A DNA stretch of 64,000 nucleotides, from assembly GCF_000730165.1 (NCBI RefSeq), contig NZ_CP022111.1:1364001-1428000 (forward strand), read 5' to 3'. Positions 41,306 to 48,253 of this stretch are shown one piece after another. Every line of letters starts with the position of its first letter. Positions within the stretch are counted from its first letter, which is position 1. Below the pieces are notes generated by a model. That model searched no databases and was not told the DNA's origin. It saw only the letters and a program-made list of their open reading frames with translations. Both the position numbers and the translations under genes were made by a program. This stretch comes from Nitrospirillum viridazoti CBAmc (GTDB lineage: Bacteria > Pseudomonadota > Alphaproteobacteria > Azospirillales > Azospirillaceae).

Positions 41306-41998
41306 CTACGTCTCCTCCGGCGCGTCCATCTCCGCCTTCCAGTCGGCCAGCAGGGCGTGGCGGCGGCGGGGATAGCGGTCGGCCTCCACCGTCACCTCGA
41401 CGATGCGGTCGGTACGGAAATGGCGGAAGGCCTGCCGCGTCTCACACCACGCGGCCACCATGCGGATGCGTTCCATAAAGGCCAGGGCGAAGGGCCAGAT
41501 GGTGCGGTCGCTGGCCCGCCCCTGCCCGTCGGTGTAGGCGATGCGCAGCTTGCGCTCCATCCGGATGGCACGGCGGATTTCCGTCAGGTCGCGCGGCTCC
41601 GTCACGCTGGGCTTCAGCGACACCGGCACAAGGCCGCTGTCCTCCGCCAGTGCCTTCAGGTCGGCGGGCAGCACGGCCGTGATCTTGGCGGTGGCGTTCT
41701 GCGCCGCCAGGCCCAGGGGGCCGTCGCCCCGCTGCGCCACCCAGCGCAGGCCCAGCACCAGGGCCTCGATCTCATCATCCCCGAACATCAGGGGCGGCAG
41801 CATGAAGCCGGGGCGCAGGACGTAGCCCAGGCCGGCCTCCCCCTCCACCGGCACGCCCTGGGCCGCCAAGGTGGCGATGTCGCGGTAGACGGTGCGGATG
41901 GACACGCCCAGCTCCGCCGCCAGGTCGGCGGCCGTCACCGGCCGGCGATGGCGGCGCAACGCTTGGATGAGGTCGAGCAGGCGGGCGGAGCGGGACAA
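41306..41998 (-). CDS. YafY-type transcriptional regulator (HTH and WYL domain)
   Basis: A 230-residue DNA-binding regulator. An N-terminal winged helix, SRSARLLDLIQALRRHRRPVTAADLAAELGVSIRTVYRDIATL, is followed by a linker, then a WYL-like ligand-sensing domain with EIRRAIRMERKLRIAYTDGQGRASDRTIWPFALAFMERIRMVAAWCETRQAFRHFRTDRI. The frame is open up to 42151, but the family normally starts at SRSxRLL, so TTG 41998 is the best guess although no ribosome site is clear. It is convergent with the DUF4431 gene and 149 bp downstream of the pepsin-like gene on the same strand. Confidence 0.78.
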   Translation of the reverse strand: MSRSARLLDLIQALRRHRRPVTAADLAAELGVSIRTVYRDIATLAAQGVPVEGEAGLGYVLRPGFMLPPLMFGDDEIEALVLGLRWVAQRGDGPLGLAAQNATAKITAVLPADLKALAEDSGLVPVSLKPSVTEPRDLTEIRRAIRMERKLRIAYTDGQGRASDRTIWPFALAFMERIRMVAAWCETRQAFRHFRTDRIVEVTVEADRYPRRRHALLADWKAEMDAPEET

Positions 41999-42147
41999 GG
42001 GATAGAAACCGGCGCGATGGATCGGAGGCCCGGCATGGTAGCCCGGCCCCCGCCCGCCCTCAATGCCAGCGGCTGATGTCAAAGGACATGTGGTCGCGAT
42101 ACCGGCACTCTTGTAGAAATCCAAAGAAGACCTTCGCGACCATACCC

Positions 42148-43293
42148 TCATGGCCGAGGCCGCGATGGCGGCTGGTTCGGCCGGACACCGAAATAACCGC
42201 CGTCGGCATCGAACGCCACCTGATAGCTGCGCAGGAAATGCCGGCCGGTGTTGGCGAAGGCCGGCCGCTGATGCACGTAGACGGCGGAAGGCTGCAACGG
42301 GTCCTGGGGGTTGACCGTGAAAGCGTATGTCGCGATGGGCATGCCGGTCGCCGGGATCCGGATATTGACGGCATCCCCCTTGCCCAACGTTTCCGCCTTG
42401 GCCTGCGGCAGGTTCAGGTACATCTGCGCGATGCCGGTATCGATCAGGGCGTTACCGGCATCGCATTCCTGTCCCTTGACGGAAACGCAGGCCGTCACCT
42501 GGGCCCAATCTCGCGGCAGCGTCGATCCCTGATAGGGGTTCAACTGGCTGAAGGTGAAGCCCGCGGTGTTGTCCTGGGTCAGGCCCAACTGCATGCCGTC
42601 CGCCGTGATGATGTAGCCGGCGCGCATGGTGCCGGGCTGCACCGGCTTGCCCTTGATGCTGACGATGCTGAGCAGCGCGTTGCGGTCCGGGAAGCCCTGC
42701 GGCTGGCCGTCATAACGCCGGCCGAACCCCACGCCCATGTAGTGCGGATAAGGCGGCCTGGGCTCACCCTCGCAGTCGGGCAGCGCCTTCTGCTCGTCAT
42801 ATGAGCTGCACTTGATCTGCTTTTCCACCGCCAGCACGCGCAGGTGCGCCATCGCCACCGGGTTCTTGTCCTTGTCCACGAACACCAGATCCTGCGGAAC
42901 CCAGTAACCGACCGACAGAAGGTTGTCGCTGGACAGGAATTCCCACCCCTTCTCCATCTTCACGACCTGGTCGCGCGTATAGCCGACGATTTCGCCAATC
43001 GGCAGCATCACGCCGGTGGAGCCCGTGTCCATGTCCATCGTGTGGACCTTGGCGTCGGCCTTGGTCCCGATCCTCACGTGAAAGGACGGCGCGTTGACGA
43101 ACTTCTCCAGCTGCTTGGTCCCGTCGGGGTTGGTGACCATTTGGGTGATGGACGGGATGAAGGGGATCAGGACGGTCGTGGTGTAGGCGCTGTAATCGGG
43201 CGTGGATCCGGCCGCCTGGGCCACCGGCGCCAATCCCATCGCGATCAGCGCGCCGGCCAACAGGTGACGCGGGGTTCCGGACAAAAAAGACAT
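42148..43293 (-). CDS. secreted pepsin-like aspartic protease-like protein
   Basis: A 381-residue protein with a signal peptide (LLAGALIAMGLAPVAQAAG). Two catalytic-type motifs are present: DTGSTG starting at residue 89 and IDTGIAQ with Asp285. Their spacing of 196 residues is like pepsin's (32 and 215). The C-terminus FLRSYQVAFDADGGYFGVRP matches the pepsin-family ending in which FLR-YY-VFD precedes a final G-A strand, so this is a two-lobed A1-type fold rather than a dimeric retropepsin. The flap tyrosine is uncertain. AAGGAGAGG precedes ATG 43293. It is the last gene of the LodA/LodB operon, 14 bp after lodB. Pepsin homologues are rare in bacteria. Confidence 0.7.
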   Translation of the reverse strand: MSFLSGTPRHLLAGALIAMGLAPVAQAAGSTPDYSAYTTTVLIPFIPSITQMVTNPDGTKQLEKFVNAPSFHVRIGTKADAKVHTMDMDTGSTGVMLPIGEIVGYTRDQVVKMEKGWEFLSSDNLLSVGYWVPQDLVFVDKDKNPVAMAHLRVLAVEKQIKCSSYDEQKALPDCEGEPRPPYPHYMGVGFGRRYDGQPQGFPDRNALLSIVSIKGKPVQPGTMRAGYIITADGMQLGLTQDNTAGFTFSQLNPYQGSTLPRDWAQVTACVSVKGQECDAGNALIDTGIAQMYLNLPQAKAETLGKGDAVNIRIPATGMPIATYAFTVNPQDPLQPSAVYVHQRPAFANTGRHFLRSYQVAFDADGGYFGVRPNQPPSRPRP

Positions 43294-43307
43294 GAGGCCT
43301 CTCCTTA

Positions 43308-44507
43308 TCATCGATCGGTCACGACGCGGGTAGGTGCACCGCCCTGGGCGCCATCCGAAGATCCGCCCGGCCGCGCCAGGTCGGCGCGCCGCTGCCGCTC
43401 CCGCCAGAACAAGGCGTCGGGCCATCGGGTTTCCAGGCCGTAGAGGTAGGCGCGGTTCAGGCAATAGTCGGCATAGCGTTCCGCCACCAGCGCCGCCCGG
43501 GGCCGGGGCGGCGGCGGCAGGGCGGCGCCCCAGCCCCGGGCCACATCCCGGCCAGCGGCAACGCCATCCACCAGCGCCTTGTAGACCCCCTGCGCCGCTA
43601 CCGGGTCATAGCTGGCGGCGGCATCCCCCACGGCCAGCCAGCCCGGCCCATCCACCTGCGCCAGCAGGCTGGACTGGATGGGCAGCAGCGCCGGTTCCGC
43701 ATCACCGGCACCCGGATCCACCCCGGCCGCCGCCAGCCGCGGCCCGATCAGGGCGGTGGCCGCCAATCCGCGCCGCCAGGACGGCAGTGTCCCGTCGTCG
43801 CGCAACCGGCGGAGACCCGCCTGGTCGGTCACCATCATGACCACCACCCGCTCATCGGGCAGACGGGCCGCGTACCACCAGCCGTCGGGCGTCGCCTCCA
43901 GCAGGGTTTGCCAGGTCAGCATTCCGGGCAGGGGCAGAAAGGCGGCCAGGGCGTACAGGGTGTCGTCCACCCGGCGTTCCACACCCAGCGCGCGGGCGAA
44001 GCGCGCCTCCGGCCCCGTCGCGTCCACCACCTGGCGGGTTTCCACGGCTCGGGTGGTGCCCGCCACGTCCAGCATCAACCGATGGCCCAAATCCGGCATG
44101 ACCTCCACCCGCCGGAACGCGGTGTCGAAGACCACCGTCACGCCGGCGGTTTCCGCCGCAGCCACCAGCATGGCGTCAAACCGGCGGCGGTCCAGCCGCC
44201 ACGCGGGCCCCATGGGGTTGTAGAGGAAGTCGTTATGGCCAACCCGGTCGCCACCCCACAGGGACGCGCTGCCCGGACACGGCGCATGACCATCGGCCCG
44301 GAAGCGCGCCGTCAGCCCCAGTTGCCCCAGGGGCAGCAACAGGTCAGGCGGCGCGCTTTCGCCGATGCGCTGCCGCCCCGCCACGCCCGCCTCCGCGACC
44401 AGGACGGCGATGTCCGGGCAGTGGTTCTTGAGGGACAGGGCCGTGGCCAGGCCAGCGGGCCCGCCCCCCAGGATGATGGCGTCGTACCGCGTCCGCACCG
44501 GCAGCAC
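43308..44507 (-). CDS. LodB-like FAD-dependent oxidoreductase (quinone cofactor maturation)
   Basis: A 399-residue flavoprotein related to tryptophan halogenases and geranylgeranyl reductases. The dinucleotide fold YDAIILGGGPAGLATALSL opens it; GPAWRLDRRRFDAMLVAAAE and RQVVDATGPEARFARALG follow; WLAVGDAAASYDPVAAQGVYKAL is the second FAD contact. In Marinomonas, LodB is needed to make the cysteine tryptophylquinone of LodA, probably by oxidising the tryptophan. The same role is likely here because the gene starts at GTG 44507, only 7 bp after the LodA-like stop. The next gene downstream, 14 bp away, is the pepsin-like protein. Confidence 0.82.
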   Translation of the reverse strand: MLPVRTRYDAIILGGGPAGLATALSLKNHCPDIAVLVAEAGVAGRQRIGESAPPDLLLPLGQLGLTARFRADGHAPCPGSASLWGGDRVGHNDFLYNPMGPAWRLDRRRFDAMLVAAAETAGVTVVFDTAFRRVEVMPDLGHRLMLDVAGTTRAVETRQVVDATGPEARFARALGVERRVDDTLYALAAFLPLPGMLTWQTLLEATPDGWWYAARLPDERVVVMMVTDQAGLRRLRDDGTLPSWRRGLAATALIGPRLAAAGVDPGAGDAEPALLPIQSSLLAQVDGPGWLAVGDAAASYDPVAAQGVYKALVDGVAAGRDVARGWGAALPPPPRPRAALVAERYADYCLNRAYLYGLETRWPDALFWRERQRRADLARPGGSSDGAQGGAPTRVVTDR

Positions 44508-44514
44508 CCTGCCG

Positions 44515-46620
44515 TCAGCGGCCGCGCCGCCGCCGGCCGGCCGGCGCCCGTCTGGCCCCACCGGCAGTCCCGCCCAGGGGACCGTCCAGCACCGCCTTGG
44601 CCGGGTTGGCATTGAACGGCCAGGCCAGCACCGGCTCATCCGGATCGCCAGCGTCCTGCAACTGGCTGGCGACCTCCAGATAATGATTCGGCGACACATC
44701 GTTGCCGTCGATCACCGTGCCCTGCAGCACGATGCCGATCTGGTCCCACTGCTGCACAGCCTCCAACGGGTCCTGGAAGGTGCTGGCCGTCCGGGGATTG
44801 AGGGCGAAGCTACCCTGGCCCCGGATGGACCATTTCTGCGGCGGCAGCACCTTGGCCACCACCTCATCCGCCACATAGACGGCGTCCGGCCGCTGCGCCG
44901 GCCACGACCAGTAGAGCGTGGTCGGGCTGCCGGTGGCGGTATTGGTGCCGTTGATGCTGGTCTGGTGGATGGAGCAGGAGTTGTAGTCGGTCTGCCAGGG
45001 AATGGCCATGAACTTGCAGAGGTCGCCCGGCTCCAACCCATCATCCTGGTGGCGCAGCGGTATCCACCCGCCCTTCAGGAAGGGATGGGCCGCGACGGCC
45101 TGGCTGTAATCCAGCGGCTTATGCTTGATGCGGAAGGGTCCGGCGCCGGTGCTGGCCCAGTCCTGCTGGTAAATATCCTTCTGGCGGATGGTGTAGCTGA
45201 CCTCGATCCCCGGTACATAGCGCCCGCCCAGGCAGTTGCTGAGCGAGGCCTGGTCCAGCAGCTCGCCAGGGCCCAGGGCGGGTGCTGCGGCGGTGTTGAA
45301 GCGATGCTTGCTCCACTGTTCCAGGAAGAAGTACTGGGTGGGCGTGACCGTCAGGAAGGCCTTGCCCGCGTCGCCCAGCGACAGGGGCATCAGCGGCACG
45401 CCCACCGACGTCTCCCCTGCCAAGTTGGGGTTACGGATGAAGGTCAGGCCCGCCATGATGGTCTGGTCGGGGTCGTCGGCGGCGGCGATGGCGTCCACCG
45501 CCGCGTGCGCCCGCTGGGCGATAGGCGGCAGGTTCACGGTCCAGCGCTGCAAAGCGGCGGCGCGGAACACCGGGTGGATGTCCGTCTCGAAATTGGGCAC
45601 GTAGTCACCGTTGTAGACACCGTTGGCGTAAAGCGACGGCATCAGGTCCAAGGTGCGCACCCAGGCGTCGAACACGTCATCCCAGACGGAGACGACGTTG
45701 CGGATCTGCGGGGCGTAGGACGGATCGCAGCAGACGACCCAGCCGCCGAACGCCTCCGCCACCGTGCCGTCGGTGAACACCAGCGTGGCCGACACCGGGC
45801 CGTCGGCGGCATCATCGAACCAGCTGGGGTTGTTGGTGTCGCCGGTCATCTGGACGACTTGGCTGTATTCGTCATACTTACCGGCGGTGCGGCCGAAGGC
45901 CGACAGCACCAGCAGGCGCCCCTGCGCGTCGGTGCGCAATTCGCCCAGGGTGTCGATGGCGCCCATGGGCTCATACAGCAGGCCGGACGGGAAGCTCTTG
46001 GGATAGTCCGCGTTCTCGGCGATGCCGCCCTTGCGGTCGGAATAGCTGGCCGGGGTGGTGACATCGAAATTCACCACCGCGCTGGGCGTGCCGCCGGCCA
46101 CCAGGGCGCGGGGGCCGGGGTCGATCACCAGAGACTTCAGCCGCGTCTCGCTGTCGGGCGTGCCGTAGACCTGGGGATTGCGCAGCTGCGGCACCTGGCC
46201 GTCAGCGAAGGCGTTCAAGCCTTCGGAGCTGACAACGCAATAGTTGTTGGCCTTCTTGTTGGCCAAGTGCACGGTCCAGACCACCTGCGCCACGGTGCGG
46301 CCATCAGCCAGCGTGGTGCCGGGCAGGATTTCCACCCCGCCACCGTTGGGATAGGCGTCCGGCCCCGCCAGATCGTATGCGTAGAGGCGGAAGCGCGCGG
46401 CCTGGCGCTTCAGGTTGCCGTCGGCGTCGCGCAGGTCGCCGCTGCGCACGAAGGACTCCGTCCCGTCCGCGGCCGCCTGCAAGGGCAAGCCGCCGGTGGT
46501 GTCGGTACCGTCCAGGGGGAGGCCGGCGCTGGTCTCCGGCGAATAGTAGAAATCCTGGCTGGTGCCGAAGCGGGCGAAGTTGATGGTCGGGTGAACGCGG
46601 AAAACGGTCCGGGTCGACAT
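44515..46620 (-). CDS. LodA/GoxA family cysteine tryptophylquinone oxidase
   Basis: A 701-residue protein of the family that includes L-lysine 6-oxidase (LodA, about 726 residues) and glycine oxidase GoxA. These oxidases deaminate an amino acid and produce an aldehyde or keto product, ammonia and H2O2. The N-terminus RVHPTINFARFGTSQDFYYSPET is a family hallmark. The quinone is expected from Cys549 in PWQTDYNSCS, with Asp545 four residues before it as in LodA (Asp512/Cys516), and Trp573 in YWSWPAQRPDAV. The spacing between Cys and Trp is 24 residues, shorter than LodA's. No classical signal peptide; an Arg-rich tail ends it. GAGG precedes ATG 46620. Substrate not known. Confidence 0.85.
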   Translation of the reverse strand: MSTRTVFRVHPTINFARFGTSQDFYYSPETSAGLPLDGTDTTGGLPLQAAADGTESFVRSGDLRDADGNLKRQAARFRLYAYDLAGPDAYPNGGGVEILPGTTLADGRTVAQVVWTVHLANKKANNYCVVSSEGLNAFADGQVPQLRNPQVYGTPDSETRLKSLVIDPGPRALVAGGTPSAVVNFDVTTPASYSDRKGGIAENADYPKSFPSGLLYEPMGAIDTLGELRTDAQGRLLVLSAFGRTAGKYDEYSQVVQMTGDTNNPSWFDDAADGPVSATLVFTDGTVAEAFGGWVVCCDPSYAPQIRNVVSVWDDVFDAWVRTLDLMPSLYANGVYNGDYVPNFETDIHPVFRAAALQRWTVNLPPIAQRAHAAVDAIAAADDPDQTIMAGLTFIRNPNLAGETSVGVPLMPLSLGDAGKAFLTVTPTQYFFLEQWSKHRFNTAAAPALGPGELLDQASLSNCLGGRYVPGIEVSYTIRQKDIYQQDWASTGAGPFRIKHKPLDYSQAVAAHPFLKGGWIPLRHQDDGLEPGDLCKFMAIPWQTDYNSCSIHQTSINGTNTATGSPTTLYWSWPAQRPDAVYVADEVVAKVLPPQKWSIRGQGSFALNPRTASTFQDPLEAVQQWDQIGIVLQGTVIDGNDVSPNHYLEVASQLQDAGDPDEPVLAWPFNANPAKAVLDGPLGGTAGGARRAPAGRRRRGR

Positions 46621-46669
46621 GGGGCACAACCTCAATTGTCCGGAAGTGACGGGGATGCGGCGGTGGGCG

Positions 46670-47626
46670 TCAGCCGAAGCGCGGCGTGACGCCGTTCTTC
46701 CAGCAGTTCTGGATGCCGGCACCGACCGAGATCATCAGCGGGACAAAACCGCCGGGATTGCCCCCGGCGAACAACTGCTCCAGCGCCGTGCGGAAGCGGC
46801 CGAACGTCTCCACCAGGGTGGCGGCCAAGGCCCGCTGGTGGTCGCTGTAATCCACCGCCAGCGTCACCGGATAGGTCAGCGGCTTCGCCACCGTCTGCCG
46901 GATGGTCTGGAACTTCTGGAAATGGGGCCAGCTGGGGTCGCTGTCGTCGGCGGTGTTCTGATAGGCCGCCGGCAGCGCCGCGCTGGCGCCGCTCGCCCCC
47001 TCCCCCTGCTCCCGGATGGTGTTGATCAGCAGCACCACCTGGTTGTAGCCGTCGCCATCGCTGTCGGTGACGGTCAGGGACGGCATGTTATTGTAGAAGG
47101 CGGAGAAGTGGTCGACCTGACGCACGCCGCCCTGGATGTGACGGCGCAGCAGGCCCGCCCCATACTGCAAGGCGTCGTAGAACTCACCGATGCTGCCGTA
47201 TTCGGTGATGGTGTCGCGCAGGATCGCTTTACCGCCCGTGTCCCACTCCGGATATTCGATCAGGCACATGCCGTTGATGCGCGGGATATCCAGCGGGCCG
47301 ATCTCCGCGCTATAGGGCGCGAAGTCCGGCCGGGGATCCGGCTTGTCCAGGGCGAAGTCCAGGTGTGGAATGTCGTGGCCCCGGTAGACGGGGGCGGCGA
47401 AGCGCGGCGAGAGGCCGTAGGCATTAGCGATGTTGCACGCCAACTGGACGTGCAACATCTCCTGGTTCACCACGCTTTGCACCAGTTGAACGGCCTGTGC
47501 CGTCCGATCGACGACCGAATACAGCGCCGACATGTAATAGGGGATGGTCCAGAATTCCAAATCCACCGCCGCCTGCAAATGCTGGTGCAGATGGGCGATG
47601 GTCCACTCATCATCCTTTAGGCGCAT
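46670..47626 (-). CDS. ferritin-like protein (first gene of the LodA/LodB operon)
   Basis: A 318-residue protein with the ferritin-like domain also found at the N-terminus of VioB. Helix 1 reads WTIAHLHQHLQAAVDLEFWTIPYYMSALYS with Glu24, and helix 2 VNQEMLHVQLACNIANAYG with the E-x-x-H pair at residues 56 and 59, both candidate iron ligands. Further helices include YGSIGEFYDALQYGAGL and SDHQRALAATLVETFGRFRTALEQLF. Its function is unknown; iron-dependent oxidation or scaffolding for the LodA-like enzyme are options. GAGGAGG lies 9 bases before ATG 47626, which I preferred to ATG 47644. It is 49 bp upstream of the oxidase gene, on the same strand. Confidence 0.8.
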   Translation of the reverse strand: MRLKDDEWTIAHLHQHLQAAVDLEFWTIPYYMSALYSVVDRTAQAVQLVQSVVNQEMLHVQLACNIANAYGLSPRFAAPVYRGHDIPHLDFALDKPDPRPDFAPYSAEIGPLDIPRINGMCLIEYPEWDTGGKAILRDTITEYGSIGEFYDALQYGAGLLRRHIQGGVRQVDHFSAFYNNMPSLTVTDSDGDGYNQVVLLINTIREQGEGASGASAALPAAYQNTADDSDPSWPHFQKFQTIRQTVAKPLTYPVTLAVDYSDHQRALAATLVETFGRFRTALEQLFAGGNPGGFVPLMISVGAGIQNCWKNGVTPRFG

Positions 47627-47727
47627 GGCGCGCGGCCTCCTCATCCATGTGAGGACGCTTCTTTGCGGATAAGCGCCCTCATGGTCGTAGAGGATAAGTC
47701 AAATACACGCCATAGTACACAATTCAC

Positions 47728-47748
47728 ATGTCACAAGTTGTGACATGG
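47728..47748. promoter_or_regulatory. 21-bp perfect palindrome, candidate operator of the LodA/LodB operon
   Basis: CATGTCACAA, a central G, then TTGTGACATG. It lies 102 bp before the ferritin-like gene's start and 32 bp from the OsmC stop, in an A+T-rich patch suited for a promoter. A dimeric regulator site is likely; which one is unknown. The centre-to-centre arrangement differs from CRP/FNR. Confidence 0.6.
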
Positions 47749-47779: not shown

Positions 47780-48253
47780 CTATTCCATCACCACCGTTCC
47801 CTCGGTCACCACCGGGAAGTTGACGGAGTTGGCGATGAAGCAGAAATGGTGCGCCTTGTCGTGCAGCGCCTGGGCCAGCGCCGGGTCGCCGTCGGCGGCG
47901 ATGGTCACCGTGGGGCGCAGGGTGACCTGGGTGAAGTGCCCGTTGCCGTCCGCCGTCTCCACCATCGTGCCCTCCGCCTGGTCCTGGTAGGCGGTGACGA
48001 CCAGCCCGGCCTCGGCCGCCAGGTGCAGGTACCACAGTTTGTGGCAGGTGGAGAGGGAGGAGACCAGCATCTCCTCCGGATTGTAGCGGGTGGCATCGCC
48101 CAGGAAGGCGGGGTCGGAGGAGCCGGGGATGACCGGCTTGCCCGCCGCCTGGATCTCATGGTCGCGGGTGTAGGCGCGATAGTTGGCGGTGCCCTGCCCC
48201 TTGTTCCCGGTCCAGGTGACGGTGACACGATAGGTGTGTTGCTTGCCGGCCAT
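47780..48253 (-). CDS. OsmC/Ohr-like family peroxide-handling protein
   Basis: A 157-residue OsmC-family protein. Members are dimeric thiol peroxidases that reduce organic hydroperoxides with two reactive cysteines. The first is in YNPEEMLVSSLSTCHKLWYLHLAAEAG, the second in HDKAHHFCFIANSVNFPV, both at the expected places, with WTGNKGQGTANYRAYTRDHEI at the start typical of a YhfA/SACOL1771-like subgroup. GGGAGC precedes ATG 48253. It lies immediately upstream of the LodA/LodB operon on the same strand. Since LodA-type enzymes release H2O2, a protective pairing is conceivable, though a separate promoter region lies between them. Confidence 0.88.
   Translation of the reverse strand: MAGKQHTYRVTVTWTGNKGQGTANYRAYTRDHEIQAAGKPVIPGSSDPAFLGDATRYNPEEMLVSSLSTCHKLWYLHLAAEAGLVVTAYQDQAEGTMVETADGNGHFTQVTLRPTVTIAADGDPALAQALHDKAHHFCFIANSVNFPVVTEGTVVME

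What the first reader, a model, noticed from the sequence alone, without database searches (positions are those of the whole stretch)
42148..47626. Four-gene LodA/LodB-type operon with a ferritin-like and a pepsin-like protein
Seen: four minus-strand genes with spacers of 49, 7 and 14 bp encode a ferritin-like protein, a LodA/GoxA-family oxidase, a LodB-like flavoprotein and a secreted two-DTG aspartic protease-like protein. Known: LodA/GoxA enzymes carry a cysteine tryptophylquinone whose formation needs the LodB flavoprotein. Inferred: the two extra genes belong to the same system. The pepsin-like protein could process, release or activate the oxidase, by analogy with other peptide-cofactor quinoproteins that need a protease, and the ferritin-like protein could assist oxidation or supply the enzyme. 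I know of no described system of this composition.
Basis: partly seen in the sequence, partly recalled or inferred. Interest (0 to 1): 0.8.

Follow-up and report, generated by a model that had tools for sequence, protein, structure and literature searches.

The report
Quinone oxidase cassette with ferritin-like partner
A bacterial enzyme expected to build its own quinone cofactor and make hydrogen peroxide is encoded with its likely maturation flavoprotein and a ferritin-like metal protein, a trio that recurs across several bacterial phyla, while the protease-like fourth gene beside it looks like a local passenger.

Summary
The four minus-strand genes are there as described (spacers 49, 7, 14 bp). 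Three form a real, widespread cassette; the fourth does not belong. In the 80 nearest LodA homologues kept (of 410 confirmed) from one scan of species genomes, the gene beside lodA is a PF12902 ferritin-like gene in 37, a protein with one CxxCH haem motif and a weakly P460/c'-beta-like fold in 34, and a distant relative of that in 3; in 6, lodA is fused to a PF14518 iron redox domain. The window lies in a 15-row clade (SH-aLRT 100), all ferritin type. Its ferritin-like protein keeps a 4-Glu/2-His set and matches PDB 3hl1 (Caulobacter CC_0557), itself encoded directly upstream of a Caulobacter lodA. The pepsin-like gene is found in only 1 of the 80 loci, a sister species, with its 3' half deleted; matches in 19 other genomes of the order are not beside a lodA. 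LodA keeps the CTQ residues (Cys549, Trp573). A ferritin-like gene beside lodA is already in print for fungi (PMC4417212). Likeliest role of the ferritin-like protein: a di-metal partner handling O2 or H2O2 for the oxidase; that step is inferred. Verdict: new variant of a known kind.

The parts
46670..47626 (-). Ferritin-like protein (PF12902), 318 aa; conserved E24, E56, H59, E124, E209, H235
44515..46620 (-). LodA/GoxA-family CTQ oxidase, 701 aa; C549 codon 44974-44976, W573 codon 44902-44904
   Evidence: PF17990 1e-50, PF18417 1e-39; alignment to LodA 2ymw/3weu; C549 and D545 in 90 of 90 rows, W573 in 89 of 90 with one gap
43308..44507 (-). LodB-type flavoprotein (putative CTQ maturase), 399 aa, GTG start
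   Evidence: NCBIfam LodB 7.8e-57, GoxB 1.7e-49, QhpG 9e-39, all below equivalog cut-offs
47727..47747 (.). 21-bp palindrome CATGTCACAA-N-TTGTGACATG between osmC and the ferritin-like gene; candidate operator
   Evidence: One place each in G000, G061 and G062 within 2 mismatches; none in the 4 other congeners; reversed-pattern control 0
42148..43293 (-). Two-DTG aspartic-protease-like protein, 381 aa; judged a lineage-specific passenger, not part of the system
   Evidence: DTG motifs; 1 of 80 loci; truncated in the sister species
47780..48253 (-). OsmC-like flank gene, not part of the cassette; one edge of the accessory block
   Evidence: PF02566 7.7e-15; next to the WYL gene without the block in G059, G060, G064
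41306..42000 (-). WYL-domain regulator (exact start not fixed), other edge of the accessory block
   Evidence: PF13280 2e-13, PF08279 5.2e-18; nucleotide match ends at 42000-42001 in 5 of 6 congeners

Best explanation
The unit is a three-gene cassette, ferritin-like protein then CTQ oxidase then LodB-type flavoprotein, probably read from one promoter ahead of the ferritin-like gene. LodB finishes the Cys549-Trp573 tryptophylquinone in the oxidase; the mature oxidase deaminates an amine or amino acid and passes electrons to O2, giving H2O2. The ferritin-like protein most likely carries a di-iron (or Mn/Fe) centre and works beside the mature oxidase, consuming its H2O2 or using O2/H2O2 on its product. 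In related oxidases the same slot is held by a haem protein (P460-like) or by a fused PF14518 iron redox domain; in more distant ones a catalase-fold domain is fused (literature). The pepsin-like gene is a lineage-specific neighbour with no role in this chemistry. Shown here: gene order, conservation, residue sets, partner classes. Inferred: cofactor, metal, co-transcription, export, and the partner's reaction.
For: Partner in 80 loci: ferritin-like 37, haem protein 34, distant haem protein 3, PF14518 fusion 6; 4 of the 37 ferritin loci also hold a distant haem-type gene nearby. Apart from lodA, lodB, ferritin and haem, the largest neighbour cluster that is not a shadow frame over these genes has 7 of 80 loci (clusters of 53, 18, 17, 17 and 14 loci set aside as shadow frames from one example's coordinates each). 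Label clustering on the LodA tree: 9 changes against a shuffled mean of 40.6, 0 of 200 as low. E24, E56, H59, E124, E209, H235 conserved in a ferritin fold. Caulobacter: the protein upstream of lodA is 3hl1 itself, E 1.4e-219. Permanent fusion speaks for a role beside the mature enzyme: PF14518 at the C-terminus in 6 of 6 long LodA frames; catalase-fold and PF14518 fusions are listed in PMC4417212. LodA-like proteins of Caulobacter crescentus and Chromobacterium violaceum were linked to H2O2 in biofilms (reported in PMC4417212 and PMC4699246); here C. vibrioides is ferritin type and C. subtsugae haem type. Pepsin-like gene as passenger; its first 130 codons have dN/dS 0.575 between G000 and G061, against 0.125 to 0.229 for the other three genes (few changes).
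Confidence: 0.5

Rival explanations
1. The ferritin-like protein is a second maturase: its di-iron centre adds the first hydroxyl to Trp573, and LodB then completes the quinone and the Cys crosslink.
For: PMC7876137 (passages) says that LodB and GoxB act on a Trp that is already mono-hydroxylated and that the first step is thought to be autocatalytic, copper-dependent in LodA; a co-encoded oxygen-activating protein would fill that gap. Conserved di-metal-type residues. MauG, a di-haem protein, takes part in making TTQ (same paper).
Against: Two-gene lodA/lodB operons exist without it. Domains of presumably the same role are fused permanently to the oxidase, odd for a one-time maturation step. 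The haem proteins seen have an export-like N-terminus.
Confidence: 0.2
2. The ferritin-like protein is a structural subunit or chaperone of the oxidase, or supplies iron, with no catalytic role.
For: Strict adjacency and conservation; ferritin fold.
Against: All six putative metal ligands are kept in at least 34 of 35 rows, and the other partner classes look like redox proteins.
Confidence: 0.15
3. One reading: the pepsin-like protein processes, releases or activates the oxidase.
For: In G000 and G061 it lies 14 bp or so after lodB behind an AAGGAG-like ribosome-binding site, inside the block that is absent from G059, G060 and G064. QhpE shows that a protease can serve a CTQ enzyme (PMC7876137). 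One other lodA locus, L136, has a pro-kumamolisin-type protein and an S10 carboxypeptidase upstream.
Against: Found in 1 of 80 loci, and truncated there; matches in 19 other genomes of the order are not beside a lodA; the orphan-lodB loci of G062 and G063 show no match to it between WYL and lodB; of the four proteins it alone has a signal-like N-terminus.
Confidence: 0.06
4. The neighbourhood of oxidase and ferritin-like gene is accidental.
For: None found.
Against: One PF12902 gene per genome falling within 2 kb of lodA by chance is roughly one in a thousand (my estimate), yet it is seen in 3 of 12 and 12 of 33 lodA loci.
Confidence: 0.02

Closest known systems
lodA/lodB operon of Marinomonas mediterranea (lysine epsilon-oxidase) and goxA/goxB
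   Same: Oxidase with the CTQ Cys/Trp pair followed by its flavoprotein
   Different: Two genes only; the window oxidase scores far below both equivalog cut-offs and has a ferritin-like gene ahead
Group IB LodA-like proteins (Campillo-Brocal 2015), e.g. Caulobacter crescentus, Marinomonas sp. MED121
   Same: MED121 (L087) lies in the window's 15-row clade and C. vibrioides (L105) in another ferritin-type clade; both have ferritin-lodA-lodB order
   Different: The word ferritin occurs twice in that paper's main text, both times about fungi; no substrate known
Fungal group V lodA/lodB with a PF12902 gene nearby (PMC4417212, Fig. 1C legend and section 6)
   Same: The same three families together
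   Different: lodB in opposite orientation; eukaryotic
3hl1, Caulobacter CC_0557 ferritin-like protein
   Different: No function given in the entry title; a link to lodA was not met in the listings seen
Quinohaemoprotein amine dehydrogenase (qhp genes; PMC7876137 passages)
   Same: CTQ enzyme, flavoprotein QhpG, a protease gene; haem partner (partly recalled)
   Different: CTQ on a small crosslinked subunit with a radical SAM enzyme; subtilisin-like, not aspartic, protease

Membership tests
LodA/GoxA CTQ oxidase family | LodA_N and LodA_C domains | tested here: met
   PF17990 1e-50, PF18417 1e-39, both over cut-off
LodA/GoxA CTQ oxidase family | Cys and Trp aligned with LodA C516/W581 | tested here: met
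   C549 and W573; 90 of 90 and 89 of 90 rows
LodA/GoxA CTQ oxidase family | LodB-like gene downstream | tested here: met
   43308-44507, NCBIfam LodB 7.8e-57
LodA/GoxA CTQ oxidase family | CTQ present, amine oxidase activity with H2O2 | not testable with these tools
   needs protein
Lysine 6-oxidase LodA (equivalog) or glycine oxidase GoxA (equivalog) | Score over NCBIfam equivalog cut-off | tested here: not met
   263.9 of 600 and 153.2 of 750 bits
LodB maturase (equivalog) | Score over NCBIfam cut-off | tested here: not met
   193 of 400 bits; related at family level
PF12902 ferritin-like family | Curated cut-off | tested here: met
   122.2 bits, cut-off 22.3
PF12902 ferritin-like family | Di-metal ligand set | tested here: inconclusive
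   Four Glu and two His conserved in at least 34 of 35 rows; their role as ligands is inferred, geometry not measured
VioB (said to hold a PF12902-type domain, recalled) | NCBIfam VioB equivalog | tested here: not met
   9 of 1250 bits, E 0.26
Pepsin family (PF00026) | Two DT/SG motifs, about 180-200 residues apart (spacing recalled) | tested here: met
   D89TG and D285TG, invariant in 12 of 12
Pepsin family (PF00026) | Profile match | tested here: not met
   No Pfam match for the protein at E up to 1; (own genome) is uninformative, as no control genome rang
Pepsin family (PF00026) | Two-lobed pepsin fold | not tested
Cytochrome P460 / c'-beta (haem partner of sister clades) | Fold and one C-terminal CxxCH | tested here: inconclusive

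The most novel reading that the evidence does not exclude
CTQ oxidases of this branch are two-centre machines: a quinone that makes H2O2 from an amine, and a second metal centre that uses it (or O2) on the next step. The second centre comes in alternative chemical classes, di-iron ferritin-like, P460-like haem, or fused PF14518 iron domain, filling the same genetic slot.
Probability: 0.35. Interest if true: 0.75.

Novelty: new variant of a known kind. Interest (0 to 1): 0.5.

Why it matters
LodA-type oxidases act on neighbouring cells and on biofilms through H2O2 (literature), and the gene that stands beside most near relatives of this one has had little attention in what I could search. A ferritin-like gene in a fixed place, with a crystal structure already solved in a laboratory organism (Caulobacter CC_0557, 3hl1), turns a structure without known function into a directly testable enzyme partner. 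If alternative iron centres fill one slot beside the quinone, the open questions of who hydroxylates the CTQ tryptophan first, and who handles the peroxide, become testable by gene removal.

Tried and rejected
Pepsin-like gene as a system member: rejected on distribution. Limits of that: the 80 loci are 5.8 to 18.1 kb long and many are cut by contig ends; only frames of 110 aa or more were scanned in them. Pepsin-like gene as a known family: see the observation check; DUF3443 in 82 genomes and PF00026 in the own genome rang nowhere, controls included, so both are uninformative. Repeated partner swapping: the quick tree suggested L102 and L111 as swaps, but AU tests do not reject single clades, so it is not claimed. 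Single-protein scans of viral contigs, which reach close relatives only, found none for the oxidase or the pepsin-like protein. Adjacency counts for the order and the phylum were read by eye from two tables each (with 27; 74 with 75), and contig breaks were not resolved. Structure searches of the ferritin-like model: 3hl1 alone is close; the rest are general ferritin folds or chance rows. One search covered an unrelated family and served only to place the window.

Flaws in my scripts: the WYL query was out of frame (7 stops), so its WYL results are not used. In one search the rows naming G061 are invalid (8 residues, wrong slice); only the rows without G061 are used, and one search does G061 again. 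Greedy gene calls were unreliable at this GC and were dropped. The tree left out L151 (partial lodA), 1 of 80 loci, and warns of long branches meeting. The residue count used 34 of 37 ferritins (over 280 aa) plus the window. Fold alignment A4 used 28 of 37 ferritins plus the window; A5 used 31 of 34 haem proteins. Ferritin evidence is partial at contig edges in L089, L098 and L103, and diverged in L111 (28% identity).

Papers: PMC4417212, abstract and sections 6, 7 and 8 read, other passages by word search; PMC7876137 and PMC4699246, passages only; all others, search listings only. That the bacterial ferritin or haem partner was not met in print rests on listings of open-access papers, several of them cut: 30 of 44 shown; 2; 30 of 267; 7; 7; 12 of 63; 16 of 17; 8 of 24.
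Full report
What is there. Four minus-strand genes sit between an osmC-like gene and a WYL regulator in a 7.4 Mb genome (window = G000:C2:1364001-1428000). Locus L077 is Nitrospirillum amazonense BR 11880; its contig is that of G061, listed as same genus as the window's genome, so the window is very probably Nitrospirillum. Domain searches name a PF12902 ferritin-like protein, a LodA/GoxA-family oxidase and a flavoprotein of the LodB/GoxB/QhpG group; the fourth protein has no family. The oxidase keeps Cys549, Trp573 and Asp545, aligned to LodA C516, W581 and D512; these are kept in 90, 89 and 90 of 90 aligned homologues, the one miss a gap.

Is the ferritin-like gene part of it? Yes. In 82 genomes of the order, 29 carry LodA_N at 33 places, of which 12 have a PF12902 gene just upstream on the same strand (compared by eye). 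In 397 genomes drawn across the phylum, 12 carry LodA_N, and 3 of the 12 loci (the window's included) have PF12902 next to it; the other 9 do not. A scan of a collection of 84,980 species genomes with a 9-row LodA alignment confirmed 410 relatives and kept the best 80. In these 80, a ferritin-like gene precedes lodA in 37. The distance from its stop to the aligned lodA stretch is 744 bp in L093 and at most 133 bp in the other 36. A haem protein precedes it in 34 and a distant haem protein in 3 (L102, L115, L134), and 6 have lodA fused to PF14518. Four of the 37 also carry a distant haem-type gene nearby (L092, L093, L097, L105). Each of the 9 query rows had a ferritin-like or haem partner, so this census describes the near clades, not the whole family.

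Phylogeny. On a quick maximum-likelihood tree of 90 LodA sequences the window lies in a 15-row clade, all ferritin type, SH-aLRT 100, whose record titles name Bacteroidota, cyanobacteria, Myxococcales and Proteobacteria. Partner labels need 9 changes, against a shuffled mean of 40.6, 0 of 200 as low. AU tests do not reject a single ferritin clade (p 0.716) or a single haem clade (p 0.686), so partner class may have changed only a few times. Marinomonas sp. MED121 (L087) and Caulobacter (L105) are named group IB in PMC4417212 and are ferritin type; Oceanospirillum beijerinckii is listed there with an IB and a III copy, and its locus L143, probably the IB copy, is haem type.

The pepsin-like gene. 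A 12-row profile finds it in 1 of the 80 loci, L077, and in 1 of 19 wide loci from the order, L032, which is the same place. There the 3' half is deleted and the second DTG is gone. In the order 21 of 82 genomes have a match at E up to 0.001, several of them weak or partial; of the 19 other than G000 and G061, 13 carry lodA on another contig or (G038) some 0.5 Mb away, and 6 have no LodA_N match. Its first 130 codons show dN/dS 0.575 between G000 and G061, against 0.125-0.229 for the other three genes (few changes). I read it as a passenger of this lineage.

History of the block. In congeners G059, G060 and G064 the aligned WYL and osmC flanks end 53-68 bp apart, so the 5.8 kb block is absent there. 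G062 and G063 hold an open lodB-like frame of about 400 codons at that spot, with no LodA_N or PF12902 match in the genome; dN/dS to the window gene is 0.316 and 0.340. A 21-bp palindrome stands ahead of the ferritin-like gene in G000 and G061 and ahead of the orphan lodB in G062, and nowhere else in these 7 genomes within 2 mismatches. This suggests an older cassette at this site, partly or wholly lost in congeners, and a promoter in front of the ferritin-like gene; gain by transfer is not excluded. Synonymous divergence between G000 and G061 is lower in the cassette (0.036-0.056) than in osmC (0.141, a short gene), which may reflect recent exchange.

How it works. Literature: LodB is needed to form CTQ in LodA, and its substrate is a Trp already mono-hydroxylated, the first step being thought autocatalytic (PMC7876137, passages). 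LodA-like proteins of Caulobacter crescentus and Chromobacterium violaceum are linked to H2O2 during biofilm development, substrates unknown (PMC4417212). Redox domains permanently fused to related oxidases (PF14518 here; catalase fold and PF14518 in PMC4417212) make a role next to the mature enzyme likelier than one-time maturation. The committed reading: the ferritin-like protein is a di-metal partner that handles O2 or H2O2 for the oxidase, either removing the peroxide or using it on the product. A first-hydroxylation role in cofactor building is the main rival.

Novelty. The lodA, lodB and PF12902 trio is in print for fungi, in what was read. The bacterial distribution, the link to 3hl1, the P460-like alternative and the clade-bound partner pattern were not met in the listings and passages seen, which are open-access only and partly cut. 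This is a new variant of a known kind.

Noticed in passing
L164 and L161 (G062:C5 about 104266-105700; G063:C215 about 160531-162042): Open orphan lodB-like frames (about 400 codons) at the same chromosomal site, in genomes with no LodA_N or PF12902 match; a maturase without its usual target.
   Followed up: partly
window 47727-47747: Palindrome CATGTCACAA-N-TTGTGACATG, one place in each of three congeners and always ahead of this locus; regulator unknown.
   Followed up: partly
L136:2028-5648: A PF14518-fused lodA with a pro-kumamolisin-type protein and an S10 carboxypeptidase encoded just upstream: another protease company of a CTQ oxidase, of different families.
   Followed up: no
L102:8001-11958: Two lodA-like genes in tandem before one lodB (Roseibium).
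   Followed up: no
L083, L093, L094, L108, L110, L151: A family of up to 340 aa near lodA in 6 of 80 loci; the L093 member weakly matches the THAP4-like haem-binding barrel (E 0.00012, below cut-off).
   Followed up: no
L054-L064: A conserved two-DTG protein family (40-44% identity to the window gene in alignment A3) in genomes of the same order, without any Pfam family.
   Followed up: partly
L105:3438-5258: A 606-aa protein without Pfam match, two genes upstream of the ferritin-like gene in Caulobacter; relatives in L092 and L097.
   Followed up: no
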